Assembly: GCA_022925895.1 (NCBI GenBank)
Contig: JAKSYS010000766.1
Span: 1-26,856 of the forward strand
From: Fragilaria crotonensis
Lineage: Eukaryota > Bacillariophyta > Fragilariophyceae > Fragilariales > Fragilariaceae
Length of the DNA: 26,856 nt
Reading direction: 5' to 3'
The notes under the pieces were generated by a model that worked only from the letters and a program-made list of their open reading frames with translations, ran no database searches and was not told where the DNA came from. Below are positions 167 through 26,445 of this stretch, in pieces. Position numbers and translations under genes: made by a program. Position 1 is the stretch's first letter. Each line of letters starts with the position of its first letter.

Positions 167-1030
167 ATGAAGGAGCGGAAGAATTGGAACGAAGATACAT
201 GGAACACAATCGATTTCGGAATGTTTGGACGACCCTGTCGCAAGCTGTCAACATCACACAGAGCATTTAACATGAAACTTGTTCATAATCAACTTCCACT
301 TGGCCTTCGACGACATCAACGATCAACCAGCAAGGACGAATCTCTAAAGAAGTGTCCCTGTTGTGGCATGGTCGACGAAGACGAACACCATTTGTTCCGA
401 TGCATCGCAAACCCATGTCAGGCGACAGGAATGACGCATCTACGACGAGATAAAGTGAGTGGAACTCATCCATTAAGAAAACTCCTGACGGAAGGTATCA
501 CGCACAGGGTGAACACCGGATCTTCCAATTTTCAGGTACGCATAACCGATTATCCACCCCATATGCGAGAAGCGGTTCGAACCATTACAACAGAGCAAGC
601 GGCGATTGGCTGGGAGAATGCCATCAAAGGGTTTTTAAGCAAATCTTGGATAGACATCGCATCGATGGAGTATGAGCATACACAAAAGTCGATCACAGAG
701 GGGGAAAGCCGCATGCGTCGGTGCATGGATGCATTGTTCAACTTTTCGCACGGTATATGGAAATCCAGTAACTCCGCACTCCACGAATCGGAAGAGGCTG
801 CAACCCAGCGAATGCGATCAGCGACGGCGGATACTATCATACATCTGCATTCACAGGCGGATCAAATATGCCATGACGATCGATACTTATGTGAGCTTCC
901 CCTCAAAAATATACTGAGGAGTTCTCCGTCAACTCAACGCCGATGGCTTAAAAGAATGCAGGACTCAAAGAAACTTCACACACGACTGGGTGAACGCCAA
1001 ACGCTGATAACGTCTTTTTCCGCCGATTGA
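167..1030 (+). pseudogene. C-terminal fragment of a retroelement protein with a zf-RVT-like zinc site
   Basis: The open frame encodes 287 residues. Near residues 63-79 it has a CxxC-x8-H-x4-C pattern (CPCC...EDEHHLFRC) like the zinc-binding segment after reverse transcriptase in LINE-type elements. It is basic and ends in a helical segment with the stretch RRWLKRM. A second copy of its C-terminal half lies at 3607-4095: both have a GW-N-x-KG-x-L-K-W block, a G-E-x-R-M-(R/K) block, and an RRWL...RQTL end. An in-frame TAG sits at 143-145 and no reverse transcriptase domain is present upstream, so this is a 5'-truncated remnant. The ATG at 167 is probably not a native start. The element class is inferred from the zinc motif only; it could be another family of diatom mobile element. 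Confidence 0.6.
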
Positions 1031-3606: not shown

Positions 3607-4095
3607 ATGGATACTCCATACTCCCCGACAATTTCTCAATTTCCGGCCCACTTCGGTCTTCTCCCAGAGGCGCTGTTGACTCAAGATCTTGTTGGCTGGA
3701 ATAATTCAATGAAAGGGTATCTTGCAAAACAGTGGGGAATTTTAGCACAACGCAACATGCACAGAGATACTCGGGATCCACGCAAAGGTGAGACAAGAAT
3801 GAAACAGATCATCAGCGCTCTAAGCGCTCACTCTCGAAGACTCTGGTTATCGCGAAATGAGGCTTTGCATTCCTTAGCTGAATCGGTGGAAATATCCTGC
3901 TATCACAGCAGGCCCCATTTCCTCCGCACTGGAGACCAACACTATTGTCCTCAACGACCACTGTCAAAGATCTTGGCTGGTCCTCCGGCTACTAGAAGAC
4001 GGCGGTGGCTTCGCAAAGAAGTTAAGAAATCTTCTGCCAAACTAAGAAAGGATGGGACAACTCGACAGACGTTGATGACAATTTTTTCGCAGTAA
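3607..4095 (+). pseudogene. Second retroelement C-terminal fragment, related to 167-1030
   Basis: The open frame encodes 162 residues that align with the last ~160 residues of the first fragment. It has a shared block before GW (I-x-x-(Y/F)-P-x-H), then GW-N-x-x-KG-(Y/F)-L-x-K-x-W, the G-E-x-R-M block, S-x-N-x-ALH, and a basic end RRRWLRKE...RQTLMTIFS. The zinc-binding segment of the first copy is absent here, so this fragment is shorter at the 5' side. The ATG at 3607 is the first in frame but is unlikely to be native. The tail downstream shares the 13-mer ATGGTGAAAACCC at 4185-4197. The two copies are clearly divergent, so they are separate old insertions or members of different subfamilies rather than a recent duplication. 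Confidence 0.6.
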
Positions 4096-6263: not shown

Positions 6264-8587
6264 ATGTCGCATCCAAGCAGAGCTTCACATGATCCGAAAG
6301 GGTCCAATGTCATGAATGATACCTACCAGAAGATTGAGAACACAGTGGTTGATACCATTCGTTGCCTTTCGATGGATGCAGTTCAGAAAGCAAACTCGGG
6401 ACATCCTGGAACTCCGTAAGCGTGAAGTAGTGCCTTTTGGTTCCTCGTTAAGAGTACTTTGACTGTCAACTAACTGAGCCCTATATCTTTGTGTTTATCT
6501 ATAGAATGGCAATGGCACCGGTCGCATACACCATTTGGTCCAAATTCCTTCGCTTCGATCCAGAAGATCCCATATGGCCAAATCGTGACAGATTTGTCCT
6601 CTCCATGGGTCATGCCTCGATGCTCCTGTACTCGACCCTCCATTTGGCGGGAGTTAAGGAAGTTGCTGGAAACTACACCATTGGAGATCGCGATTCTGTC
6701 ACCATGGAAGACATCAAATCCTTTCGCCAGCTCCATTCTCGATGTGCTGGGCACCCAGAGTACGTAGTCACTCAAACCTCATGTAATCAGGAAGTGATAC
6801 CAGTCAGAAGTACGTCTTTCTCACCATGAACGCGCAACTACGACAGATATCACTGGACTTCAGGTGTCGAAACCACTACTGGTCCACTTGGAAACGGAGT
6901 CGCGACTTCGGTCGGAATGGCCATTGCCAGCAAGTTCCTCGGCGCCACGTACAACAAACCTGGATATGAGCTCTTTGATTTCAATGTATATGCCTTGGCT
7001 GGTGATGGATGTTACCAAGAAGGAATATCTCATGAGGCTGCCTCTATTGCCGGTCACTTGCAGCTTGACAATCTTTGCTGGATTTGGGACAACAACCACA
7101 TCACCATCGAGGGCAACACTGCTTGGTCATTCAGTGAGGATGTTGCCACTCGGTTTGTCGCATACGGTTGGAATGTTACTCGCGTGGTGGATGCCAACGA
7201 TTTGCAGAGACTTCATCACGCCTTTGAGGTTGCTCGCCAGGAATCGAAGCGTCCGACACTGGTTGTTGTCGACTCGCACATTGCGTGGGGTTCGCCCAAC
7301 AAGCAAGACACCCATGGAGCTCATGGTGCACCGCTTGGAGATGCTGAAATTGCCGCCACCAAGACGTTTTATGGTATGCCCCCGGACAAGACATTCCATG
7401 TCCCAGATGGCGTGTATGAGCACTTCCGATCTCAGCTCAAGGCTAATGGTGGCGCCAAGCGTCTCGCCTGGCAGGAAATGTTTGTCGCATACAAGCAAGA
7501 GTACCCTGAGCTAGCTCATCAGATTGAGATGATGCATGCACGAGAGATGCCAGCAAACTGGGACTCGAACCTTCCAATTTTTCCTGCCGACCCCAAGGGC
7601 ATGGCGTCCCGCGAATCGAACGGCAAAATCATGCAGTTCGTCGCGGATGCTGTTCCATTCATGTTGGGTGGTTCCGCAGATCTTGCTCCGTCCACACTTA
7701 CTAGGTTGATTGATCCCAAGTTTGGAGACTTTATGCCCCCGTCGTCAGGATGGGGCAACTACGGCGGCCGTAACTTCCACTTTGGAATCCGTGAACATGC
7801 CATGGGTGCGATTGCCAATGGCATGACCTTATCCAAGCTCCGCGCCTTCACTTCTGGCTTCTTTGTCTTTGCCGACTACATGAAGCCGGTACTGCGTCTT
7901 TCTGCCTTGATGGAAATACCCGTGTGTTGGATCTTCACTCACGACTCCATTGGCGTCGGCGAAGATGGGCCAACGCATCAGCCCATTGAACACTTGGCCA
8001 TGCTCCGCTCGATTCCTGGTCTCGTCGTCTTCCGACCAGGCGATGCCAACGAGAACGTGGAGGCATGGCGTTGGATCATGAATCAAAAGCACACCCCATC
8101 TGCCCTGGTGCTGTCACGTCAGCCGATTCCCACCCTCGATCGTACCGTGTTTGCTGCCGCGAGCGGTACGCAAATGGGGGCCTACGTTCTTAAATGCTGG
8201 ACCGATGGCAACCCTGATGTTATATTGATTGCCACTGGGTCGGAGGTGCCACTCATTGTTGCTGCCTTTGATTTGTTATTGGCCAGGGGCATCAAGCCGC
8301 GCATTGTGTCCATGCCTTCCATGAATCTCTTTGAACGTCAATCTCAAGAATACAAGGATTCGGTCCTTCCTCCTCACGTTCGGGCCCGTGTGGCTGTCGA
8401 ATTCGCGGGCGACTTTGGTTGGTTCAAATATGTAGGATTAGATGGGCAGTTTGTCGGCATGAACACCTTTGGCGAATCCGCACCGCTGCAGCGATTGTTG
8501 GAAAAATTCAACTTTACACCAGAGCGTATTGCCGACGTGGCCATGAGTGTCTATACGAAACAGCAACAGCATCAGCAACGCGCTTAA
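6264..8587 (+). CDS. Transketolase
   Basis: The enzyme transfers two-carbon ketol units between sugar phosphates with thiamine diphosphate and Mg2+, in the Calvin and pentose phosphate pathways. Exons are 6264-6415, 6505-6759 and 6847-8587; the 89- and 87-nt introns have GTAAG and GTACG donors and TATAG and GACAG acceptors. The joined frame gives 715 residues, normal for the family. Visible motifs are SGHPGTP (45-51), GHASMLLY, the ThDP-binding GDGCYQEGISHEA (from ~188) with DNNHITIEG, and HDSIGVGEDGPTHQP (~501-515), then SRQPIP and ATGSEV in the C-terminal domain. The start is the only ATG after an in-frame TGA at 6222-6224. The N-terminus has no signal peptide or ASA-FAP motif, so a cytosolic isoform is more likely than a plastid one unless a 5' exon was missed. 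The next gene is convergent, with a 164-bp spacer. Confidence 0.96.
6416..6504 (+). other. Transketolase intron 1
   Basis: GTAAGC donor and ATCTATAG acceptor. Splicing joins ACTCC to A to restore the Pro codon of SGHPGTP followed by MAMAPVAY. Confidence 0.9.
6760..6846 (+). other. Transketolase intron 2
   Basis: GTACGT donor and ACGACAG acceptor. Splicing restores GHPEYHWTSGVETTTGPLG, the expected transketolase core. Reading through meets a stop at 6827-6829. Confidence 0.88.
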
Positions 8588-8751: not shown

Positions 8752-10218
8752 TCAACATTTGAATGGTGGCGGCAAGCCCTCCAGGGGTTGTATGCCTGTG
8801 GGAGTGAATTCATAATTCGGCAGTCCTCGGTAGTGTCGTATTTTCCACACCGACATGCTCCAACTTGAGACTCGCGTACCAATAAAGACATTGGCCTGGC
8901 AGGCCAATTCCATATTGACAACCGACGCCAGTAGTGTTAGCATGCAATGATTAATTCGATGTTCGAGGGATGCTTCACCTGCGGTCCAGACTCGTAACTG
9001 CGAACCATCAGGGTTAGCCATGCCGTCCTGAAAGAGCGTTTGGAGGAGTTGTACATTTTCGGTATGATCCTTATACCATGATTCACTGGGACGTTGACGT
9101 TCCAACATTTGAGGCATGGCCACGGCCACAAACAGTTGCTGAAATTGAGCAAACGCGGGATAATGTGTCACATGATGTAATATTTCTTGCAGACGACGAA
9201 CTTTACCAACTTGACAATAACGATAGTGCAACATTTCTGGTTCAATTCGTGGATGGAGCGCCATGTAGGGTTCCGTCGGTTTCAGAGAATTGACCAATTC
9301 TTGAACCGCTGAAGAGGGTGTCATGCTCATGAGAATCCATTCCTCCAATTGCTGTAACGATATGGAAACGCCATCTTTTTGTCGCTCCAACATGAGTCCA
9401 TATTTGTCATGCTTACGATAGTAGTCCCACAAATTTCCTGGTTGATTTGGGCGGGCTCCACCAGCAGGATAGGGAGCCGTCATGGATGTCAGCTCTGGGA
9501 CAAAGGTTGTGTACTGCGACGATTGGTACCATGCAATAACCGTCGGGCAGGTACCATAAAACATGGTTGTTTTTGGGTTCCACTGGGAATGTTCCTTGGG
9601 AGAATAGGATACTAATTTCGGAAGATTTGGATTCGCATTCCATGTATCAACGTCAAATAATAATTGAAATGGGATCCCATTGTGGGATGATCTCATACTC
9701 CACTTGACACTTTCCAACAGTATCGTTTGATTTGCGGACAGTGCCATGGCGACAAGTGCCACAAAACTCATGTACTGCTTGCGATAACCACCCTTGAGGA
9801 CTGGCAGTGCCATTGCGAGTGATGGTTCCAGAGGTGGTACCTTCTGTACCTTTGGCTTTTGTTCTGCCTTGTGTCGAGAACATCTTCGTACCAAATCAAT
9901 GCACCACAATCCTTCCATCACCTCTGTTTGTTGTGTTGTATTGGAATGTGTACTTGTATATCTTGATGCTGCGATTTTCTGGTCATCCGAATGCATGAGA
10001 AAGCCGTCCAATATCTTTGAATCAACATTGCTGACAGACTTTGCTGAAAGAGAATGCAACCAGGATCGTTTGCGCATGGAAATCTGCAAGGCGATTGCAA
10101 TTACGAGTAATATGACAATCACAAGTTGAATCTTCGTCTTGAGATTTCGAATCGATGCAACCGCCATGATGATTGTCAATGTCTTTACTACAAGTACTTT
10201 GCAAGTGCTGATGCTCAC
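8752..10218 (-). CDS. Type II membrane protein, O-fucosyltransferase-like (putative Golgi glycosyltransferase)
   Basis: Single exon, 488 residues. A short N-terminal tail is followed by one strongly hydrophobic helix (about 30-47), a low-complexity stem and a globular domain, the layout of a Golgi type II glycosyltransferase. Features resembling the O-FucT family are KGGYRKQ with a following hydrophobic helix (142-165), FDVDTW (188-193), MALHPRIEPEM (319-329, compare the ALHxRxExDM of plant O-FucTs) and VFIGTRVSSWS (444-454) near the C-terminus. These place a GDP-fucose site by analogy only; similarity is at motif level and the acceptor is unknown. Met18 (10167) is an alternative start that keeps the membrane helix. 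The gene is convergent with transketolase and divergent from phytoene desaturase with 1,021 bp between the start codons. It could belong to another GT-B family. Confidence 0.6.
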   Translation of the reverse strand: MSISTCKVLVVKTLTIIMAVASIRNLKTKIQLVIVILLVIAIALQISMRKRSWLHSLSAKSVSNVDSKILDGFLMHSDDQKIAASRYTSTHSNTTQQTEVMEGLWCIDLVRRCSRHKAEQKPKVQKVPPLEPSLAMALPVLKGGYRKQYMSFVALVAMALSANQTILLESVKWSMRSSHNGIPFQLLFDVDTWNANPNLPKLVSYSPKEHSQWNPKTTMFYGTCPTVIAWYQSSQYTTFVPELTSMTAPYPAGGARPNQPGNLWDYYRKHDKYGLMLERQKDGVSISLQQLEEWILMSMTPSSAVQELVNSLKPTEPYMALHPRIEPEMLHYRYCQVGKVRRLQEILHHVTHYPAFAQFQQLFVAVAMPQMLERQRPSESWYKDHTENVQLLQTLFQDGMANPDGSQLRVWTAGEASLEHRINHCMLTLLASVVNMELACQANVFIGTRVSSWSMSVWKIRHYRGLPNYEFTPTGIQPLEGLPPPFKC

Positions 10219-13312
<3,094 letters not shown>

Positions 13313-16800: not shown

Positions 16801-17246
16801 GAAACCGCCTCGGCAAGTACGGGTTGGAAGGGCATGCCCACGAAGTTGTCATGCGAGACTTGAGTGGAGGGCAGAAGGCTCGTGTTACCTTTGTTGAGTT
16901 AAGCCTCCAAGAGCCGCACCTACTGCTTCTCGATGAACCAACTAACAACTTGGACATTGAAAGTATTGATGCTTTGATTGATGCCATCAATGAGTTCTCC
17001 GGCGGTATTATTGTTGTCACGCACGATCAGCGGCTCATCGAAAATTGTCAGTGTAATTTATGGGTTGTCGAGAAGCAGAAGGTGACTCCCTGGGAGAAGG
17101 GCTTTAGTGATTACAAGGAAACATTGTTGACTGAGATGGAGGAACAGATTGAGAAAGAGTCCATGTTGCGACAAAAGAAATTGGAGGAAGCTGCCAAGGT
17201 CAAGGCGGAGAAGTTGGCTCTGTTGGCAAGCAGGCTAAAGCGTTAG
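13878..17246 (+). CDS. ABC-F family ATPase (ABCF1/GCN20-like) with long charged N-terminus; frame broken at 16320/16321
   Basis: ABC-F proteins are soluble twin-ATPase factors acting on ribosomes; ABCF1 and Gcn20 work in translation initiation and its control. Exons are 13878-15212 and 15322-17246 (109-nt intron, GTACGT...ATACAG). The first ~445 residues are runs of Asp/Glu and Lys plus an Ala/Pro linker and a coiled coil rich in E, K and R, as in ABCF1. ABC1 has Walker [10 protein letters not shown] (542-550), signature FSGGWRMR (660-667), Walker [13 protein letters not shown] and VSHDQDF. ABC2 has GPNGAGKST (nt 16602), [20 protein letters not shown] and VTHDQR. There is no transmembrane segment. 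In the linker after SGQSKQK the frame shifts by one base. A single missing G between 16320 and 16321 would keep [12 protein letters not shown] in frame and give about 1,086 residues. As read, the protein would stop at 16336-16338 and lose ABC2. Confidence 0.92.
15213..15321 (+). other. ABC-F intron
   Basis: GTACGT donor and TGTATACAG acceptor, phase 0. Splicing joins GPDMT to [17 protein letters not shown]. The last is a typical pre-ABC1 basic helix. Confidence 0.85.
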
Positions 17247-17408
17247 AAATTATTCGAAATCGAACTTGACTTCGCGTTTTTCTCGGCGAGCGTATCTTAT
17301 TTCCAAGCTGCCAAGGTCAAGGCAGAGAAGTTGGTTCTATTGGCATGCAGGCTAAAGTGTTAAATACGTTTCAGTGTCGAACGCGAGTTCGCGTTTTTCC
17401 ACGTCGAG
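17188..17408 (+). repeat. 117-bp-period tandem duplication of the ABC-F 3' end
   Basis: Unit 1 (17188-17290) covers the last 19 codons, the TAG and about 45 bp of 3' flank; unit 2 (17305-17408) repeats it with substitutions. The coding part [22 protein letters not shown] recurs as [22 protein letters not shown] with no indel. The period is 39 codons, and the 38 codons from the TAG (17244-17246) to the second stop TAA (17361-17363) are open. Confidence 0.85.
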
Positions 17409-17975: not shown

Positions 17976-19133
17976 TTATCCTATCACTTGTTCCTTTGAA
18001 CAAAAGGGATATGGACTATAACCGGACTTGCAACAACCTGAATTACATTTGACTTCATCACAGTCAATATAGACAGATGTTTGGCCTGCGCAGAGGGATG
18101 GCGGAATTGTCCCCGACAACAGATTGCTAGAAAAACCCAATTCACTTAATTGTGTCAAGAGCCCGATCTCGCTTGGGATTTTAGAAGTCAACTTATTCCT
18201 GGAGAAATCCAACCCAGTGAGCTTTACCAAGCGCCCGATCTCACTTGGAATCTTGCCAGTCAACAAATTTCCAGTATTCAGCTCAAAGTCGATGGGTATC
18301 ATGAGTATGATTGCCCCACCGAAATCCAACCGAGTCAACTTTGCCAAGCGCCCGATCTCACTCGGAATTGTTGAAACCAACTCATTGCCTGCAAAACTCA
18401 ACCGATCGAGCTGTGTTAGGCGCCCGATCACACTCGGAATCTTCCCAGTCAAATGATTGAAGTCGAAGCCCAATGCAATCAGCCTTGTCAAGCGCCCGAT
18501 CTCATTGGGAATTGATGAAGTCAATGCATTCAAAAGGAAATCCAAACCTGTTAGCCGTGTCAAGAACCCGATCTCAGAAGGAATTGTTGAAGTCAATCCG
18601 TTGCCGGCGAAACCCAAGTACTCAAGATCGGTCAAGAGTCCAATCTCAGATGGAATTGTCGAAGACGTCGTCATGAAGGAAATATCCAAATACGTCAGTT
18701 GTGTCAAGAGCCCAATCTCACTTGGAATTTTTAAACCCTGCGTTGGCGAGTCTTGGTTTGGGTTTATAAAGGACCTTGCCTCCAGGCATGCAGCCAATGG
18801 TGTGAGGGAGAGGAAATTACAGGCGATTATGAAGTGTTCGTTAAGGGACGGCGTTGGACGACGAGTCGTTGGACGGCGCGTTGTTGGACGGCGCGTTGTT
18901 GGACGGCGTGTTGTTGGACGACGAGTTGTTGGGCGGCGAGTTGTTGGACGGCGTGTTGTTGGACGACGAGTTGTTGGACGGTGTGTTGTTGGACGACGAG
19001 TTGTTGGGCGGCGAGTCGTTGGACGGCGCGTTGTTGGACGAGACGATTGTGGCTGCGTGGGTAGAGCTGCTGCTCCTGACGACAGCAACGTGGTCAGCAA
19101 CGTCAACCAGTACAATGAAAAGATCCTCATCAT
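17976..19133 (-). CDS. Secreted LRR protein 1 with PTTRR repeats and Cys-rich C-terminal cap
   Basis: Starting at the tandem ATGs 19128-19133, aligned with the start of the third paralogue (MRI-x-SLY-x-LTLL), the protein is about 385 residues. It has a signal peptide ending near SSGAAA, twelve xTxRP pentapeptides, an N-cap with two Cys (IACNF...AACLEAR), eight plant-type 24-residue LRRs (I-P-S-E-I-G-x-L-T-x-L-x-x-L) and a C-cap C-x7-IDCDEV-x-C-x2-CC-x-SG-x3-P-x2-C. The sixth LRR carries an extra ~10-residue insert (18262-18320). There is no transmembrane segment or kinase domain, so it is predicted to be extracellular or wall-bound. Function is unknown. The frame stays open upstream to 19226, but that part lacks a signal peptide. 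Flanks on both sides are related to those of the third locus. Confidence 0.8.
   Translation of the reverse strand: MMRIFSLYWLTLLTTLLSSGAAALPTQPQSSRPTTRRPTTRRPTTRRPTTHRPTTRRPTTRRPTTRRPTTRRPTTRRPTTRRPTTRRPTTRRPTPSLNEHFIIACNFLSLTPLAACLEARSFINPNQDSPTQGLKIPSEIGLLTQLTYLDISFMTTSSTIPSEIGLLTDLEYLGFAGNGLTSTIPSEIGFLTRLTGLDFLLNALTSSIPNEIGRLTRLIALGFDFNHLTGKIPSVIGRLTQLDRLSFAGNELVSTIPSEIGRLAKLTRLDFGGAIILMIPIDFELNTGNLLTGKIPSEIGRLVKLTGLDFSRNKLTSKIPSEIGLLTQLSELGFSSNLLSGTIPPSLCAGQTSVYIDCDEVKCNSGCCKSGYSPYPFCSKEQVIG
18854..19033 (-). repeat. 15-bp minisatellite coding PTTRR, 12 units
   Basis: Twelve 15-bp units, read on the plus strand as variants of TTGGACGGCGAGTTG. Units differ at silent positions (GGCGCG, GACGAG, GGCGTG) and one encodes TTHRP. 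The third paralogue also has twelve units. Confidence 0.95.
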
Positions 19134-20251
19134 CGAGTTGATGTAGTTGTGTAATGGTAGTTCAGCGTTTTCAGTATGATCAGTGTGAGAAATCCAACGG
19201 AAGCGATAGTGTTCTGATAACAACAACTGGAGGATGGCCTTGGAATCGATACAACCGGAGTTATCGACAAGGGAATGAAAGAGGCAGTGACTTTGATCTT
19301 CGTCGAGATCAAGATTGGAACCGCGAGAAATTGAACTTAAGAAAAAAGTACTTCGGTAAAAATTGTGATGTTAAAGAGCGGTAAAAGTGGATTTAATCAT
19401 GACGTGAGATGCAGTAGGGGAGCTGTAGCCGTTGGGACGGTTTTTAGTTTTGTGGATGATCATTCCGCCAAGGAGGGACTGAGAGGCAGAATACAAGCGA
19501 CTTCCATCCGCGGATAGGTGCATTCCGATAACTACTAGCTAGCACATGGATTTTGGATTTACGCTTTACTGTAACAGACGCGTTTGGTGTCATCCCTGTT
19601 CAGGTGATGCCACAGGAAACTGGACACTTGGCGTGATGTTGCAAGAATATGCTGCAACCGGTGCGTCATTTAGAGAGTTCTGGGTTCTGGGCTTTTGGAA
19701 ATCTCTATGAACATAATACATAAATCCATGGAGTGAATTCAAGCAAGAATTGGGAAAAGTTTTGCGTGCACGACGCTATCATTCGTCGAGTACCGCATTG
19801 TGTGCTCCGGCCCTCGGACGTTTGGTTACAACAAGCAGAAAGCAGAAACGAGATTTTCCAGTCTTTAGGCAGTCATCGCATGACCTTCATTCAGGTCATT
19901 CTTTATATATATCGTATACCCCCGTTACCGAGCATGGCATGCATGATTTCACGCATTGCATACCTGAAATCAATTGCAGAACAGCGACGGGCAACGCAGG
20001 CCCTGGATTAAAATCTGAAACGCTTACGACGTAGAACAGGTTTGTGAACTGTGTAGAGAGGCGCACTCGCTTATTTTTACTCCGTTATCTTGACCATAGC
20101 ATTGGCATTGCATGTTGCGTTCCAAGTTCCAACGCACTGCGCAGATTTTAATTCGTCAGATGTGAAACAATTCATTTCATGATCTAAAAAAAACACTATC
20201 GTTGAAAATGATTAAAGGATCGGTGTCCTGTCACTTGGTCCTACTAACTTA
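19134..20251. other. Region between LRR loci 1 and 2: duplicated flanks, no intact gene
   Basis: Around 19546-19596 the sequence matches 26666-26706 upstream of the third LRR gene (ATGGATTTT..., then GCGTTTGGTGTCAT shared by both), so the upstream flank was copied with the gene. The last part (about 19925-20190) matches the 3' flank of the third gene at 24380-24665. It includes ACGCAGGCCCTGGATTA and CAATTCATTTCATGAT, and on the plus strand ends the remnant frame ...AEQRRATQALD-stop at 20009-20011. A 92-codon open frame at 19733-20011 contains that remnant and is not otherwise recognised. Confidence 0.55.
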
Positions 20252-21079
20252 CTAACAATACCCGAATGGCGATTTACCTGAGCCGCAACAATTCGATGAA
20301 CAAGTGACTTCATCGCAGTCAATGTAGACATAAATTAGGGATGGCGAGCAGATGGACGATGGAATAGTCCCCGACAACCGATTGTTGTACAAGGCCAACA
20401 TATCTAGTCGAGTCAATCGCCCAATTTGACTCGGAATCCTACCAGTCAACTGATTGTCGGCCATGTACAACTGATCGAGCTGTGTCAAGCGCCCGATCTC
20501 ACTCGGAATACTTCCAGTCAACTGATTGATGCGATTGGTGGTGGGATAGGCAAAATTAAAATAGGGATCGCTGAAAGACAACCTTACGAGTTTTTCCAAG
20601 CGCCCGATCTCACTCGGAATGCTCCCTGTCAACGAATTCACTGAGAAATCCAACGAATCCAGCTGAGAAAGTCGTCCAATCGCACTCGGAATGCTGCCCG
20701 TCAACTTATTGAAGCTGAAATCCAAAACAATCAGCTCTATCAAGCTCCCGATCGCATTCGGAATGCTGCCCGTCAACTTATTGTAGTTGAAACCCAAGTA
20801 CGTCAGCTTTGTCAATCGCCCAAGCTCTCTAGGAATTGTTGATTTCAATTTCAAAGCACTCAGGAAAGGACCCGAGAAACTCAAATGCTCCAAATTTGTC
20901 AAGAGCCCTATCTCACTTTGAATAGGGCTAGACACATTAGAAAAACTCAAAGATGTCATCTGTGTCAAGATCCCAATCTCACTTGCAATTGGAGAAGAAA
21001 TACCGACAAAATCAGTTTTCCTTCGACATTCAGCCAATGATTGGACGTAAAAGCAATTGCAAGCAATCCTGTACTGTTC
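20252..21079 (-). pseudogene. LRR protein 2, lacking its 5' end
   Basis: The frame encodes the N-cap (IEQYRIACN...LAECRR, matching the other two paralogues), about eight LRRs of the [11 protein letters not shown] type, the variable insert (20524-20575), two more LRRs and the Cys cap (IDCDEVTCSSNCCGSGKSPFGYC, ending at the stop). Upstream, an in-frame TAA lies seven codons before the conserved IACN segment. No signal peptide, no PTTRR repeats and no usable ATG are present within about 200 bp. Either the 5' part was lost, making this a pseudogene, or an unrecognised upstream exon exists. The LRR part itself has no stop or frameshift, so the loss may be recent. Confidence 0.65.
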
Positions 21080-21378
21080 AATAACTTGTTATAGTTGGCT
21101 TACTCGCTGTATGTCACGGATCGGGCTGTATGACTCACTGTACGTTGCCTTTGTTGTCATCTACAGCTCTGCGTACTCAGATTTGACGTCAGAGCATAAG
21201 ATGGAACGTTGCTTCGAATTACATAATCCACATGGTGTCGGCAGCAAGTTTTAGCGATAACAAGACCCAAAAAAGCAAAACACGACTTGTTTTTTACGAA
21301 CACACCCGGAGATGATCAACAACTAACCCGGAAATTGTCAAGATTTGGCGTGATTTGGCGTTGTTTGGCGTTGACCAT
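21080..21378. other. No gene seen
   Basis: Short open frames only. Three imperfect 10-bp copies of (A/G)TTTGGCGTT lie at 21343-21373, immediately before the tandem repeat. Confidence 0.5.
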
Positions 21379-21752
21379 GACAAAAGTGCCTATTGTGCAG
21401 TCACTTGATGCCGGACAGCAAGAAGGTGATTGCAAGACCCAAAAGGTGGACAAGACAGAGCCTTTGATGTGATTGAAAGGGTTCTTGTCGGTGTTTTTGG
21501 GGACAGGGGACATGATCATTGTGAAGATGATATTTAACACGGCAATTTAACACGTGAAAATCTAAAATTGACAAAAGTGCCGATTGTGCAGCCATTAGAT
21601 GCCAGACCACAAAAAGTGATCACAATTCAAGATGGGCATGACAGAGCTTTTGTTGTGATAGAAAGTAGTGTTGTCGGTAAATTCAGAGATAGCAGTCATG
21701 ATCATTGTGAAGATGAGATTTAACACGGATTTCACCACGTAAAATCCGAAGA
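21379..21752. repeat. Tandem repeat, two units of 191 bp
   Basis: GACAAAAGTGCC, ATTGTGCAG, GATGCC, GACAGAGC, TGTGAT-GAAAG, TGTCGGT, CATGATCATTGTGAAGATGA, TTTAACACGG and CACGT-AAAATC occur in the same order from 21379 and again from 21570. Units are perhaps 70 percent identical. The minus strand of both units carries related peptide frames (LN-x-IFTMIM...), too degraded to call a gene. Confidence 0.7.
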
Positions 21753-22133
21753 TTGATTTTTGTACGGTGAATTTTTGGATAATTTGTCCTTTCCAGAGCG
21801 ATTCATTTAGGACAAAAAGTTTTGCGACGACCACAAAATTGGTCTTTCTTTGCATCAATGTATCTCCACCATTTTTAGGACAAAATAGGAAAGCAGCACT
21901 GATTTGGAAAGGTCATGAAGTCAGGAACAGGATTTACGACTACGATTTTAGTGGTATTGGAAATCTGGAGATAGCGAGGATCGCCAAAAATTGTCCTTTT
22001 TTTGTCCTACACTTTTCAATGTTTGGGGTTATTATTTCTCAGAACGTACTTTGTGTGAAACCTTCCTACAGTAATTTACCTACGGTACTACGTACTATTT
22101 TCTACGATTAGAGTATCATCTCCGGTGATAGCC
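21753..22133. other. No gene seen; TTTGTCCT inverted repeats
   Basis: TTTGTCCT near 21784 and AGGACAAA near 21810 form an 8-bp inverted repeat, and the same octamer or its complement recurs near 21877, 21990 and 22000. The window begins with a similar TTTGTCCTAC. This may be decayed transposon end sequence. Confidence 0.35.
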
Positions 22134-22171
22134 ACTAGAGACCATTCGGGCTCTGGAGCAGTGGCCCGATC
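22134..22171 (-). repeat. 38-bp interspersed repeat, copy B (inverted)
   Basis: Reverse complement of the unit at 2502-2539, with GGCCACTGCTCCAG in place of GGCTGCTCCTCCAG in the loop region. It lies 57 bp downstream of the stop of the remnant frame 22229-22438. Confidence 0.7.
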
Positions 22172-22228
22172 CAGCCAGCCCCTCGTTAAAGTGCCGTTAC
22201 TATTCTTATTTTTGTATGATCGAAAAAC

Positions 22229-22438
22229 TCATTCTTCATTACAGAGTAGATAACGGTTTCTCAGTTCATGTAAAGCTTGATTTCTCAACCAATTCCTCAA
22301 ACGACGCTGAGATAGTGCATCGTTATGCTCCTTGGGTTGGCTTGTACACTGTACCACGAGATGCACGGACTCATCGTTGTTCGGCTTTTTGGTGAAGTCG
22401 ATTTGAGGCCTGAAATTGACCTTCCACGTGGACGAAAA
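22229..22438 (-). pseudogene. C-terminal remnant of an unrecognised protein
   Basis: A 69-codon open frame without Met runs to a TGA at 22229-22231. It reads FSSTWKV, then DFTKKPNNDESVHLVVQC and a helical, arginine-rich end ALSQRRLRNWLRNQALHELR. Codon use looks protein-like, and the frame is closed upstream by TAA. It may be the last exon or the tail of a mobile-element protein. I do not recognise the family. Confidence 0.35.
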
Positions 22439-23746
22439 TTAGAAATGTACTAATTCCCATGTAGGCTGTACGAGGAAAAAAAATCTGAATTGCAGAGAAT
22501 TTCGAAGTGCTCTGTCACCAAACGCACTCGCACCACTATCTGACAATGAGAAATCCGTCCATGAAGTGATCCATTGTCATCAAGATGATGCTGGTGGTGC
22601 CTGCAAAGCCATGTTCAAAAACGTCACAGGCAGTTGATGGATGGTTGGGATCGACGATCGGTGGTTGTTGACACTCCTGATTCACATACTTCGTGTCGCA
22701 AACAGAATTCAACACTTAACTTCAATTGACGACTCTTCTTCTCGTTCTGCCTCCCTTTTCAACAACAAGGAACAATGTGAAAGTGTGGATATGCTCATGA
22801 ATGACGGCCACAGTTTTGCTGAGTGCAATGGTTGCACTACTCTCGCAGTTTTTCTGGAGGTATGTGAAATGCTATGAACTATCGATCATTTCACTTCAAA
22901 ACTTGTCCTCTGGTTGTATCTCACGCCTTTGTTTCAGGCATAATCTCCTGTCTATTAGTTGTTGATTACAGTTCAAGAAGCTGTATCAAAGCTCTCGATA
23001 AAAAAATTTCGATTGCAGGTTGATTCTATCGCTTGTGTTTTTGAGGAGGCGGTGCATCAAAGTTTTATGATATGCTGGAAGATAATTTTGATCCAAATGA
23101 AGCGTGTGTCTGCTATTTCTGATTTGGACGAGGTGGAGACGCATCAAACCTGTCAAATATGGACAACATCGTTGGCCCTGATGCAGGTTGTGTCCGCTGT
23201 GTCTGCAGCAATAGTAGAGGCGGAGCTTGCGTGTGCATCAACCGTGTCGGATGACAGCCATTGTCCGAATGTATCAGGTTGTGCCTCCTAACCTTTCTGT
23301 TTTGCACGGAGGAGTAGCTGTGTCTTCAAAGCTGCCAAATGTGGACGACAACCTTGTCGCTCCAGTTGCAGATTCTGAATGCTGCTTTGAAGGAAGAAGA
23401 GCAACTCCCTCACTTCTGCTAAAGACGACAGAAGAGGATGCTTTGTTGGGCAGTTCGGAATTTTGCTTGCCTTTTGAAGGAGCCGCATTTTAGTGCTTGT
23501 TGTAATTGTGAGCCGTCGACAGCGGCTGCCTCCTTTGTGTCATCATCGTTGTCTGTCAACGCACTTAAGTAGATCAACAACGTGAGATTAGCTCGAGAGC
23601 TCGAGTATACAAAATGCGCGCCAACAATAGATCGTTTGTGCCGGCGATTTACTTAAATGATTTTTTTATATGTTGAGTAGAGTGGATGGATAATGCATTT
23701 CGGTGAAGACGTTAAAAATAGTATCGAATTTGTGCTCATAACCAGA
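22439..23746. other. No recognised gene
   Basis: Open frames of 60-110 codons occur on the plus strand (22641-22877, 22959-23291, 23227-23493), with plausible but unproven splice signals (GTATGT at 22860, TTTCAG at 22938). Several phrases such as AGGCGGTGCATCAAAG, GGTGGAGACGCATCAAAC and AGTAGCTGTGTCTTCAAAG look like diverged internal repeats. This may be a decayed repetitive gene; nothing could be assigned. Confidence 0.3.
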
Positions 23747-23784
23747 AATCGGGCCGCTGCTTCAGAGCCTGAATGGTCTCTAGT
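23747..23784 (+). repeat. 38-bp interspersed repeat, copy C
   Basis: Same 38-bp unit as at 2502-2539, with CAGAGCCTGAATGGTCTCTAGT at its 3' part. The CTCTAGT end is followed by an extra CTCTAGT. Confidence 0.7.
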
Positions 23785-23883
23785 CTCTAGTGCTCAAGTC
23801 GGAGCATGTCGGTTCAAGAAATTCTCTGAGCTAAAGTTGCACCCCCTTCCCCCTTCCTGTCCGAAGCGTTGCAACCGGTAGCA

Positions 23884-24225
23884 TTATGAAAGAGTTGGGC
23901 ACAGTCGCATCGATCTGTTAAGACTTTTGATGTAGAAGGGTCTGAGTATTACATTCTCGAAGGTGTGATCGACAGTGGCATGATGTGCAACGTGATTCAA
24001 CACACAAACACACATGACATTGAAGGCATCACTAGTGCGCCGATGATGCTCGAGATAAACCCGATCCCCGTACCACATTTGAACGTTTTCACAAGACTCT
24101 TGTAGAAGAAGAAATGCGGTTTGTCTCTGCTTCACATTCGCTACCCCACAGGATGGCTGGCCTGCCAACGATGAATTGTTTCTGAATATAAAACTCGATG
24201 TCACGTATAACATTGCCTCGTTCAT
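23884..24225 (-). CDS. Hypothetical 113-residue frame, doubtful
   Basis: ATG at 24225, Met-rich start MNEAMLYVT, Cys/His scattered through the second half (VMCVCVLNHVAHHATVDH). It has no recognisable domain. An overlapping minus-strand frame (24089-24283) joins it in a different phase, so a frameshift in an older gene is possible. It may not be coding. Confidence 0.2.
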   Translation of the reverse strand: MNEAMLYVTSSFIFRNNSSLAGQPSCGVANVKQRQTAFLLLQESCENVQMWYGDRVYLEHHRRTSDAFNVMCVCVLNHVAHHATVDHTFENVILRPFYIKSLNRSMRLCPTLS

Positions 24226-24315
24226 GCAAGTTGAGGCAGTGAAGGTATGACGGCTGAAAATTGATAAATGCTGGCGAAATCATGCCGTATTTCCTGATGC
24301 TATATAATGGCTTGA

Positions 24316-24603
24316 GAAGCTTATGCTCGCCGTCGTATTGACGAACTTATGTTTGATGCCATCGACCAGTGTCGTTCCAGAGGAGGGACGCCTTCCGGCG
24401 GAATGCTTATCGAATAGTACATCATATACGACGTCGCACAACGGCAGGGTTCGTAGGCCAACTTCAACGAGTTCGCACAACGGCGAGCAACGCAGGCCCT
24501 GGATTATGATCCAAATAGCGAAGAACAGAGTTGTGAACAGTATAACGAGGAACACTTTATTGTTTTCCACGATCTTTACAATAATTACATCATTGAATCA
24601 TGA
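24316..24603 (+). pseudogene. Remnant of a protein gene with two in-frame stops, convergent with LRR gene 3
   Basis: The frame reads EAYARRRIDELMFDAIDQC, then GGTPSGGMLIE-stop, YIIYDVAQRQGS-stop, ANFNEFAQRRATQALDYDP and continues to YNNYIIES-stop. The end of the same protein (P-S-x2-M-x3-I-x-Y, then AEQRRATQALD) is present on the plus strand downstream of LRR gene 2 at about 19925-20011, showing it was a real conserved gene rather than a chance frame. A 39-bp internal tandem duplication (TCGCACAACGG at 24434 and 24473) is specific to this copy. The family is not recognised. Confidence 0.5.
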
Positions 24604-24732
24604 GTTCCAAATGCGCCTCACAGATTGTTGCTACTTGCCAGATACGCAACAATTCATTTCATGATGTCATGCTCAAACAAGACGCACACCTTCAAATGAT
24701 TGTAGGATCCTGTATCGCGCTTCTTTCTCCTT

Positions 24733-26445
24733 TTAACATAACGGGTAAGGTTTAGCACCTGATCTGCAACAACCTGATTTACAGGTGACTTCACTACAGT
24801 CAATTTTGACAGCAGCCCCGTCTGAGCAGAGGGACGATGGAATAGTCCCCACCAAGTGATTCTCGGAGAAATCCACATTATAAAGCTCTGTCAACAGTCC
24901 GATCGCAGTCGGAATGCTACCAGCCAACTGATTTTCGGAGAAATCCATAATACCAAGCTGTGTCAACAGTCCGATCGCAGTCGGAATGCTACCAGCCAAC
25001 TGATTTTCGGAGAAATCCAAATTACCAAGACGTGTCAACAGTCCGATCGCAGTCGGAATGCTACCAGCCAACTGATTTTGGGAGAAATCCAAAACACCAA
25101 GCTGTGTCAACAGTCCGATCGCAGTCGGAATGCTACCAGCCAACTGATTTTCGGAGAAACTCAAATAATAAAGCTGTGTCAACAGTCCGATCGCAGTCGG
25201 AATGCTACCAGCCAACTGATTTTCGGAGAAATCCAAATTACCAAGTTGTGTCAACAGTCCGATCGCAGTCGGAATGCTACCAGCCAACTGATTTTGGGAG
25301 AAATCCAAAACACCAAGCTGTGTCAACAGTCCGATCGCAGTCGGAATGCTACCAGCCAACTGATTTTCGGAGAAACTCAAATAATAAAGCTGTGTCAACA
25401 GTCCGATCGCAGTCGGAATGCTACCAGCCAACTGATTTTCGGAGAAATCCAAAGTAAGAAGCTGCGTCAAGAGCCCGACCTCACTCGGAATCTTGCCAGT
25501 CAACGCATTTTTGAAAGGATGCGGAACGATTATGCCAAACAAACCGCGACGTACCCCCCCGAATTCCAAACTCACGAGGTCTGCCAAGCGACCGATTTCA
25601 CTCGGAATTGTTGACGTCAACTTGTTACCTGCGATTCTAAAGGACTGAAGACGAGTCAAGCGACCGATCACGCTCGGAATACTGCCAGTCAAATGATTGA
25701 ATGAGAGTTGCAAAAAAGATAGCTGTGTCAAGCGTCCAATCTCCGTAGGAATTCTTGAAGTCAAGTTAGAACCGTAGAAAGACAAGGCCTGAAGCTTTGA
25801 CAACCCCCCGACTGCACTCGGAATGGTGCCCGTCAAGGATGTATCGCCGAAACCCAAATCCGTCAACTTTGTCAAATGGAAGATCTCATCAGGGATTGTT
25901 GAAGTCAACTCCGGACAGAGGGTGAAAAACAACCCCTCCATGTTTGTCAAGAGCCCTATCTCACTTGGGATTGTGAAAGGGTTTTGAATCAAATTCAAAG
26001 ACAAACGTGTCATTTTAGTCAAGAGCCCAATCTCAGTTGGAATTGTTACATCACTCAAGTATATGATTTCAAATTCCCTTTGCTCTTGACATTCAGCCAA
26101 TGATGGGGCGGAAAAGAAATTGCAGGCGATCATGTACTGTTGAATAAGGGACGATGTTGGACGGCGAGTTGTTGGACGGCGAGTTGTTGGACGGCGAGTT
26201 GTTGGACGGCGAGTTGTTGGACGGCGAGTTGTTGGACGGCGAGTTGTTGGACGGCGAGTTGTTGGACGGCGAGTTGATGGACGGCGAGTTGTTGGACGGC
26301 GAGTTGTCGGACGACGTGTTGTTGGACGGCGAGTTGTTGGACGAGACGTTGGTGGTCTTGTGGGTGCTGCGACGACTCCTGTCAAGAGGAGCACCGACAG
26401 CAACGTCAACGAGTACAATGACAAGATCCTCATCGTCAAGCGCAT
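24733..26445 (-). CDS. Secreted LRR protein 3 with PTTRR repeats and an expanded LRR array
   Basis: A single exon of 570 residues. Signal peptide [20 protein letters not shown], cleaved near VVA; twelve PTTRR units (one STRRP); N-cap [17 protein letters not shown]; about seven degenerate LRRs; the variable insert (25508-25562); nine LRRs, eight of them nearly identical [13 protein letters not shown] units; and a C-cap SLC-x7[17 protein letters not shown]3-P-x2-C at the stop. It has no transmembrane helix or kinase domain, so it is predicted to be secreted. The Arg/Pro/Thr segment is strongly basic and could be O-glycosylated or bind anionic wall polymers; this is inference. Met5 is an alternative start that matches paralogue 1 better. 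Ligand and function are unknown. Confidence 0.85.
24897..25472 (-). repeat. 72-bp LRR-coding tandem array, 8 units with 216-bp higher-order period
   Basis: GATCGCAGTCGG recurs at 24901, 24973, 25045, 25117, 25189, 25261, 25333 and 25405, exactly 72 bp apart. Three unit types, YYLSFSE, GVLDFSQ and GNLDFSE, occur in that order twice. The segment around 25160 recurs at 25376, giving a 216-bp period with only a few differences. Confidence 0.95.
26157..26336 (-). repeat. 15-bp minisatellite coding PTTRR, 12 units
   Basis: Twelve units, most of them exact TTGGACGGCGAGTTG on the plus strand, one ATGGACGG and one TCGGACGACGTGTTG variant. It is far more homogeneous than the array in paralogue 1. Confidence 0.95.

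What the first reader, a model, noticed from the sequence alone, without database searches (positions are those of the whole stretch)
17976..26445. Family of secreted LRR proteins with PTTRR stalk and a Cys cap, in a three-locus cluster
Three same-strand loci share signal peptide, twelve-unit PTTRR stalk (two copies), N-cap IACN, LRRs and a C-cap C-x7-IDC-x-EV-x-C-x2-CC-x-SG. The combination of a basic Arg/Pro/Thr stalk with plant-like LRRs and no membrane anchor is not one I know as a characterised family. It may be a wall-bound recognition or adhesion protein. Flanks on both sides are also related, so entire loci were copied.
Basis: partly seen in the sequence, partly recalled or inferred. 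Interest (0 to 1): 0.7.

Follow-up and report, generated by a model that had tools for sequence, protein, structure and literature searches.

The report
Secreted diatom LRR proteins, basic stalk
A freshwater diatom seems to make secreted recognition-type proteins that carry a leucine-rich-repeat domain on a long, strongly positive stalk; they look like a soluble offshoot of a large membrane-anchored family whose ligand-facing surface is evolving fast.

Summary
The feature is real. Two window genes (24733-26445 and 17976-19133, minus strand) are single open frames: signal peptide, exactly twelve PTTRR-type units, a two-Cys N-cap (IACN), 17 and 9 LRRs, a Cys-rich C-cap. The third locus (20252-21067) has caps and LRRs but neither signal peptide nor stalk. 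The assembly fits the diatom Fragilaria crotonensis.

The LRR part is not stand-alone. Of 21 other readable relatives among the closest matches fetched, 16 look membrane-anchored: one transmembrane helix, neutral Pro/Thr stalk, same caps. The window genes fall in a soluble, basic-stalk branch (UFBoot 95). The stalk is translated (25 silent to 4 amino-acid variants). It is also shuffled: leader plus stalk precedes a PLC-like domain elsewhere, and PTTR[RK] stalks follow a trypsin and a cytochrome-b5 domain.

New here: LRR units multiply as 72-bp repeats, and recent copies differ mainly on the ligand-facing strand (dN/dS about 1.85 against 0.32 elsewhere; weaker by one simpler count).

Best reading: secreted, probably wall-tethered ligand-recognition proteins working like plant LRR-extensins. 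Secretion is predicted from sequence; wall binding and ligand are inferred. Verdict: new variant of a known kind.

The parts
24733..26445 (-). Gene A: PTTRR-stalk LRR protein with leader peptide, 570 aa, single ORF
   Evidence: ORF; Pfam LRR; AlphaFold model m3011632f86c6
26365..26445 (-). A: signal peptide region (about 27 aa)
   Evidence: two Arg, weakly hydrophobic core (recalled scale, best 19-mer -1.0), small residues before the stalk; 96/98 nt identical to the same region on contig C224
26161..26340 (-). A: twelve PTTRR-type units (15-bp repeats)
   Evidence: TRF; unit count; nearly all residues under pLDDT 50, no regular structure
26089..26127 (-). A: N-cap IACN...C
   Evidence: Cys 108 and 119; same pattern in relatives
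24844..25419 (-). A: eight near-identical 24-aa LRR units (72-bp repeats) with variation mainly at the strand positions
24736..24828 (-). A: Cys C-cap
17976..19133 (-). Gene B: PTTRR-stalk LRR protein with leader peptide, 385 aa, single ORF
19062..19133 (-). B: signal peptide region (about 24 aa, ends AAAL)
18858..19037 (-). B: twelve PTTRR-type units
18786..18824 (-). B: N-cap IACN...C
17979..18092 (-). B: Cys C-cap and short tail
20252..21067 (-). Locus M: N-cap + LRRs + C-cap only; no signal peptide, no stalk (ATG ORF 20252-20959)
20255..20350 (-). M: Cys C-cap

Best explanation
A and B encode secreted ligand-recognition proteins of a pennate diatom. The signal peptide sends them through the ER. 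The 60-residue PTTRR stalk (about one third Arg, net +23 to +26, Pro/Thr-rich and disordered) tethers them ionically, or through O-glycans, to polyanionic wall or mucilage polymers and holds the LRR solenoid away from the wall. The LRR concave face binds a protein or peptide ligand. Specificity diversifies by amplifying 72-bp LRR units and changing the strand residues. They are the soluble branch of a large type II membrane-anchored diatom LRR family, made when a signal peptide replaced the cytoplasmic-plus-transmembrane part and a short PTTRR seed in the stalk was amplified. Functionally they would act like plant LRR-extensins: wall-held LRR sensors or decoys for the same kinds of ligand as the membrane-bound relatives. 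Shown by sequence: architecture, coding constraint on the stalk, relation to the membrane-anchored family, unit amplification, excess amino-acid change on the concave face. Inferred: secretion as a fact, wall tethering, ligand binding, the evolutionary order.
Against: No expression, proteomic or ligand data. The leaders are not cleanly separated from TM segments on the recalled scale: A scores -1.0 and the C224/C746 copies -2.1, while the weakest relative counted as TM scores -2.0 (L038); an uncleaved anchor is therefore not excluded for A, less likely for B (+1.8). Five of the 21 relatives show no TM in the piece read, so the contrast is not complete. A count of single-nucleotide codon differences gives concave 72 N: 14 S, which does not exceed the neutral share (p 0.16); per gene the all-pairs ratio is below 1 in 3 of 16 rows. 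All five PTTRR-LRR places outside the window (three on C398, C224, C746) are interrupted by a stop or frame change: decay, errors of a nanopore-based assembly, or small introns. The LRR part of A carries -15, so the stalk might pair with its own domain instead of the wall.
Confidence: 0.53

Rival explanations
1. Structural or adhesive wall protein: the basic stalk binds silica or acidic polysaccharide and the LRR domain acts as a generic protein-protein glue (for example for colony cohesion), without specific ligand recognition.
For: Basic stalk (+23 to +26); the same kind of stalk is attached to unrelated domains, as for a generic tether; Fragilaria forms ribbon colonies (recalled).
Against: Excess amino-acid change at the concave strand positions is expected for ligand recognition and not for passive glue; plant-receptor-like LRR consensus.
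Confidence: 0.2
2. Signal-anchored membrane protein: the N-terminal hydrophobic segment is not cleaved, so A and B are short-tailed type II membrane proteins like most of their relatives, with a more basic stalk.
For: 16 of 21 other relatives read are membrane-anchored by prediction; A's segment is about 20 residues and moderately hydrophobic, and the closely related C224/C746 leader scores -2.1, as low as the weakest TM segment counted (-2.0).
Against: The LRR leaders of this group score -2.1 to +2.1 on the recalled scale, against -2.0 to -9.0 for the relatives' TM segments; they sit at the extreme N-terminus, with small residues before the stalk; the related leader before the PLC-like domain scores +6.2, far from a TM segment.
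Confidence: 0.17
3. Secreted inhibitor or decoy (PGIP-like): a soluble LRR that blocks microbial enzymes or effectors, the stalk being only a carrier.
For: Soluble Cys-capped plant-type LRR with a fast-changing concave face.
Against: No homology test to PGIP caps was made; a strongly basic 60-residue stalk is not a PGIP feature (recalled).
Confidence: 0.07
4. Decaying gene family: copies are mostly broken, and the window ORFs are relics.
For: All five PTTRR-LRR places outside the window carry a stop or frame change, and M lacks its 5' part.
Against: A and B are intact, with coding constraint on the stalk; the assembly is Nanopore-based with Illumina polishing (PMC9476933), so isolated frame changes may be errors.
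Confidence: 0.03

Closest known systems
Membrane-anchored diatom LRR proteins (such as MRP2 and MRM2 of Pseudo-nitzschia multistriata, PMC6261938; LRR tandem duplicates of Seminavis robusta, PMC7335047)
   Same: LRR domain without a recognisable kinase domain (MRP2/MRM2); LRR genes are a main class of tandem duplicates in S. robusta. Relatives in this genome share both Cys caps with the window genes.
   Different: MRP2/MRM2 have a transmembrane region; A and B have a leader peptide and a strongly basic PTTRR stalk instead. The sequences of those proteins were not at hand, so homology to them was not tested.
Secreted LRR proteins of the diatom Nitzschia putrida (PMC9054022)
   Same: Predicted signal-peptide-bearing LRR proteins in a diatom, said there to be the most common secreted proteins of that species.
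   Different: The paper reports only very few such proteins in photosynthetic diatoms and, in the passages I saw, mentions no PTTRR stalk or Cys cap.
Plant LRR-extensins (LRX; PDB 6qxp is LRX2)
   Same: Works-like: secreted LRR domain joined to a Pro-rich repetitive region that anchors it in the wall; LRX bind RALF peptides (abstract of PMC12759080). A matches 6qxp at E 1.2e-29 over the LRR part.
   Different: Stalk is N-terminal, Arg-rich PTTRR rather than C-terminal Ser-Hyp repeats (recalled); Extensin_1 scores 27.2 bits in A against a cut-off of 105.
Brown-algal LRR-ROCO proteins (PMC11378527; Zambounis et al. 2012 as cited there)
   Same: 72-bp LRR units multiplied within genes, with positively selected sites on the concave face; also stramenopiles.
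   Different: There each unit is an exon of a ROC-COR GTPase gene; here the units are tandem repeats within one ORF of a protein with a leader peptide.
Polygalacturonase-inhibiting proteins and plant LRR receptor-like proteins (recalled)
   Same: Extracellular plant-type LRRs with Cys caps.
   Different: No basic repeat stalk; caps not compared here.

Membership tests
Diatom Cys-capped LRR family (as seen in this genome) | N-cap [IVLAT][AG]C[NDEAQST][FCLI]...C before the first LRR | tested here: met
   24 N-caps found with the pattern: A, B, two C398 copies and 20 others; M and two more stalk copies read from the outputs by eye
Diatom Cys-capped LRR family (as seen in this genome) | C-cap C-x(7-13)-IDC-x2-[VI]-x-C-x(1-3)-CC | tested here: met
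   23 C-caps found with the pattern: A, B, M, four other stalk-group copies and 16 others
Diatom Cys-capped LRR family, membrane-anchored form | Longer N-terminal part and one TM helix before a Pro/Thr stalk | tested here: not met
   16 of 21 relatives have it; A and B have only a short N-terminal leader, of which A's (-1.0) is near the weakest TM segment (-2.0) on the recalled scale
Plant LRR-extensins | C-terminal extensin domain with Ser-Pro(n) repeats | tested here: not met
   stalk is N-terminal PTTRR; Extensin_1 far below cut-off
Plant LRR-extensins | Secreted LRR domain held in the wall by its repetitive region | not testable with these tools
   leader peptide predicted only; localisation not testable
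LRR receptor-like kinases | TM helix and cytoplasmic kinase domain | tested here: not met
   no kinase family in the Pfam scan at E up to 1 and no further hydrophobic segment in A or B
Brown-algal LRR-ROCO | ROC-COR GTPase domain after the LRRs | tested here: not met
   no such Pfam match in A, B or M
GPI-anchored LRR surface proteins | C-terminal hydrophobic GPI signal | tested here: not met
   A and B end in the Cys cap with a short tail; the hydropathy scan shows no segment there

The most novel reading that the evidence does not exclude
Diatoms run an extracellular recognition repertoire in which tandem 72-bp LRR units are copied within genes and then diversified on the ligand-facing strand, displayed in two formats from one family: membrane-anchored on neutral stalks, and secreted, held in the silica wall by a shuffled, strongly basic PTTRR stalk. 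It would be the unicellular, extracellular counterpart of the brown-algal LRR-ROCO repertoire.
Probability: 0.28. Interest if true: 0.78.

Novelty: new variant of a known kind. Interest (0 to 1): 0.52.

Why it matters
How single-celled diatoms recognise partners, bacteria or parasites through a silica wall is open. A family that comes both membrane-bound and (by prediction) secreted on a basic stalk, with a ligand face that changes faster than its scaffold, gives concrete candidates and testable residues. The PTTRR stalk, attached to an LRR, a PLC-like, a trypsin and a cytochrome-b5 domain in one genome, is a candidate wall- or silica-binding tag.

Tried and rejected
Rejected: stalk as intron (codon pattern; no transcripts seen); stand-alone family without relatives; LRX or LRR-kinase membership. 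A positive-selection claim from single-nucleotide counts alone: not significant; kept only with the codon-based counts. The minimum-change count hides synonymous changes in codons that also change residue; it is support, not proof. Prokaryotic or viral relatives: 4 stretches in viral contigs (query B) and 16 in GTDB genome contigs (query alignment A2) matched a short pattern, none was confirmed by tblastn; these collections are not of diatoms, so this says nothing about other diatoms. Literature: 'PTTRR' is in 19 papers, none recognisable as diatom-related from the listing. Listings for secreted, wall, frustule or receptor-like LRR proteins of diatoms gave no description of this architecture (20 of 94, 20 of 95, 3 of 3, 12 of 339 and 10 of 62 papers listed).

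Led nowhere: N-terminus of the long-stalk LRR gene on C176 (701 bases read, still PT repeats); a structure of B and Foldseek searches (not completed). The VIA list is a second look at Foldseek's matches; families missing from it are not excluded.
Full report
Organism. The window is the whole contig C742 (26,856 bases) of an unnamed assembly of 62,107,879 bases in 881 contigs. It is a diatom: the silicic-acid transporter family PF03842 has 19 matches, 18 over cut-off, with three transporter units in one 1,456-aa frame (C97) and two in one 1,008-aa frame (C771). Concatenated silicon transporters are described for the araphid Synedra (PMC6114903, abstract and outline seen). Size and contig number fit Fragilaria crotonensis SAG 28.96, 61.85 Mb in 879 contigs, an Illumina plus Nanopore assembly (PMC9476933, first of two parts of the text seen). 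The name is my inference.

What is in the window. Gene A (24733-26445, minus) and gene B (17976-19133, minus) are single ATG ORFs of 570 and 385 aa. Each has an N-terminal leader, then twelve five-residue units (11 PTTRR + 1 PSTRR in A; 11 PTTRR + 1 PTTHR in B), an IACN...C N-cap, LRRs (17 and 9 by an IPxx[IVLF] count; 8 in M with a slightly looser count) and a Cys C-cap. Pfam finds only LRR models above cut-off in A, B and M; Extensin_1 is far below its own. Locus M between them has caps and LRRs but no leader and no stalk, with a stop just upstream. In a tree of cap segments M falls on the stalk side, so it most likely lost both. The 3' flanks of all three loci are related; of the 5' flanks only A-B is clearly so.

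Is the stalk translated? Unit by unit, six PTTRR-LRR genes (A, B, three on C398, C224; the near-duplicate C746 left out) show 25 distinct synonymous and 4 distinct nonsynonymous codon variants; with a third of changes expected to be silent the binomial p is 6e-9 (units in an array are not fully independent). All ten stalk genes together give 49 to 15; the three non-LRR genes are less constrained (raw counts 18:7, 14:9, 25:9). Unit number varies from 5 to 12 among the LRR genes. I had no transcripts, so splicing is not formally excluded.

The stalk is a module. A genome search with A's leader plus stalk gives 134 places at E up to 10; ten stand out (E below 1e-12): seven LRR places (A, B, three on C398, and the C224/C746 pair, 96.9% identical over 3.6 kb) and three others. 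Those three are a leader + PTTRR stalk + PI-PLC-X-like domain on C94 (22.6 bits, just under the cut-off of 23.1; PDB PI-PLC at E 0.004), a cytochrome-b5-like domain (26.3 bits, cut-off 23.7) followed by PTTR[RK] units on C100, and a trypsin (137.8 bits) followed by PTTRx units on C50. The leader DNA of the C94 gene is related to those of A and B (65/95 and 71/103 identical positions, 0 of 200 shuffles each); a 42-bp block upstream of B and the C94 gene only just exceeds the best shuffle (44 against 41). I infer that leader and stalk moved together at least once. The C-terminal stalks on C100 and C50 could be independent. Of the other 20 loci cut out, my filtered print-outs showed PT-repeat proteins in L067 and L069, a short leader-plus-PT frame in L074, unrelated frames in L058 and L066, and nothing for the rest; places beyond the 30 cut-out loci were not read.

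The family. A protein search with A gives 120 places on 44 contigs by my count (577 candidates, only 76 scored, so a lower bound). The fetched loci, which are A's best matches and not a random sample, show a consistent plan. Of 25 distinct N-cap contexts readable in one frame (M apart), 4 are PTTRR genes and 21 are not; 16 of these 21 have a strong TM segment (recalled hydrophobicity scale, -2.0 to -9.0) after 70 or more residues of open frame, then a Pro/Thr stalk with net charge -2 to +2. The other five (L015, L019, L021, L028, L035) show no TM in the open piece that I had. The four PTTRR genes have a short N-terminal leader (-1.0 to +2.1) and stalks of +17 to +26. The interrupted C398:40.3k, C224 and C746 copies are not in that count; their leaders score +0.5, -2.1 and -2.1. 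Both cap patterns recur through the fetched loci (24 N-caps, 23 C-caps). Three membrane-anchored members (L012, L013, L026) carry one PTTRRPTT in their stalk just before the N-cap, a plausible seed for the amplified stalk (inference). In a tree of 22 members from N-cap and C-cap segments (about 100 columns), the split of PTTRR genes plus M (7) from the other 15 has UFBoot 95; the segments are short, so this is moderate evidence.

Intactness. A and B are intact; the copies on C398 (three), C224 and C746 carry a stop or frame change. The assembly type makes isolated frame changes uncertain, and small introns were not tested, so I do not call them pseudogenes.

Diversification of the ligand face. 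A contains eight 24-aa units whose DNA is almost identical outside positions 10, 12-15, 18 and 20 (the last unit also differs at 22 and 24); a block of three different units is itself duplicated with one later change. In the model the strands lie on these positions (e.g. residues 355-357 = unit positions 13-15). Across fetched family members, taking non-overlapping closest unit pairs of at least 80% identity (36 pairs from 14 loci; 24 genes had three or more units), positions 12, 13, 15, 17 and 18 have dN/dS 1.85 (pN/pS 1.65, bootstrap over loci 1.07-2.42; 1.1% of 2,000 replicates at or below 1), the rest 0.32; with positions 10 and 20 added, 1.53 against 0.23. All-pairs counts agree (1.45 against 0.33, 147 pairs), though per row they run from 0.14 to 5.12, with 3 of 16 rows below 1 and one without silent changes; A's array alone gives 1.23. 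A minimum-change count gives 82 N:12 S against 39 N:38 S, Fisher 2e-7. Against: single-nucleotide codon differences alone give 72 N:14 S, not above the neutral share (p 0.16), although 48 of the 60 codons with several changes also lie at these positions. A similar pattern is published for brown-algal LRR-ROCO genes, whose LRR exons are 72 bp with positively selected concave sites (PMC11378527, passages seen). In P. multistriata two sexual-phase LRR genes had Ka:Ks above 1 (PMC5485032, passages seen).

How it probably works. Leader to the ER; a stalk of +23 to +26 beside an acidic LRR part (-15 in A, -5 in B) binds polyanionic wall or mucilage; the LRR face binds a ligand shared with membrane-bound relatives, so that the soluble form is a wall-held sensor, co-receptor or decoy. 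This is the logic of LRX-RALF signalling in plants (PMC12759080, abstract in listing). TM-LRR proteins without kinase were proposed as pheromone receptors or adhesion molecules in P. multistriata (PMC6261938, passages seen). For N. putrida secreted LRR proteins are reported as the most common secreted class, with very few in photosynthetic diatoms (PMC9054022, passages seen); A and B would be such a case in a photosynthetic diatom.

Novelty. Diatom LRR proteins, their tandem expansion (PMC7335047, passages seen) and secretion are known. The basic PTTRR stalk as a shared module, the soluble branch of the capped membrane family, and the concave-face pattern in tandem units within one ORF were not seen in the listings. 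Hence: new variant of a known kind.

Noticed in passing
C94 (L045:3319-4203 and downstream): Leader + PTTRR stalk before a PI-PLC-X-like domain; a PLC-like reading seems to continue in another frame downstream, perhaps after an intron.
   Followed up: partly
C50 (L055:1489-2703) and C100 (L052:530-1120): Trypsin-family and cytochrome-b5-like proteins with C-terminal PTTR[RKT] stalks.
   Followed up: partly
C176 (L015, L018, L078): LRR protein with the same C-cap preceded by a very long PTGVPTAVPT stalk in a 1,680-aa open frame; its N-terminus was not found.
   Followed up: partly
window 17188-17399: 117-bp tandem duplication (1.8 copies) covering the 3' end of the ABC-ATPase gene.
   Followed up: no
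window 167-1030 and 3607-4095: Two ORFs with similar C-termini (RRRWL/QRRWL...QTL), no Pfam match; a similar piece lies beside the C398 LRR cluster (L039:8376-8573). Possibly a mobile-element remnant.
   Followed up: no
window 8752-10167 (-): O-fucosyltransferase-like protein (PF10250, 34.0 bits, cut-off 31.5).
   Followed up: no
window 6917-8587; 11240-13312: Transketolase; amine-oxidase-family protein (scanned 11792-13309; phytoene-desaturase label recalled) with a plastid-type SAFAP leader (motif recalled) in the ORF just upstream.
   Followed up: no
C97 and C771: Three and two silicon-transporter units in single open frames.
   Followed up: no
C224:36000-42000 and C746:5500-11500: 3.6 kb at 96.9% identity; the C-cap differs by an in-frame length change (CSVERPLYLSIYIDC against CSVESPTYLIYIDC). 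Alleles or recent duplicates.
   Followed up: partly
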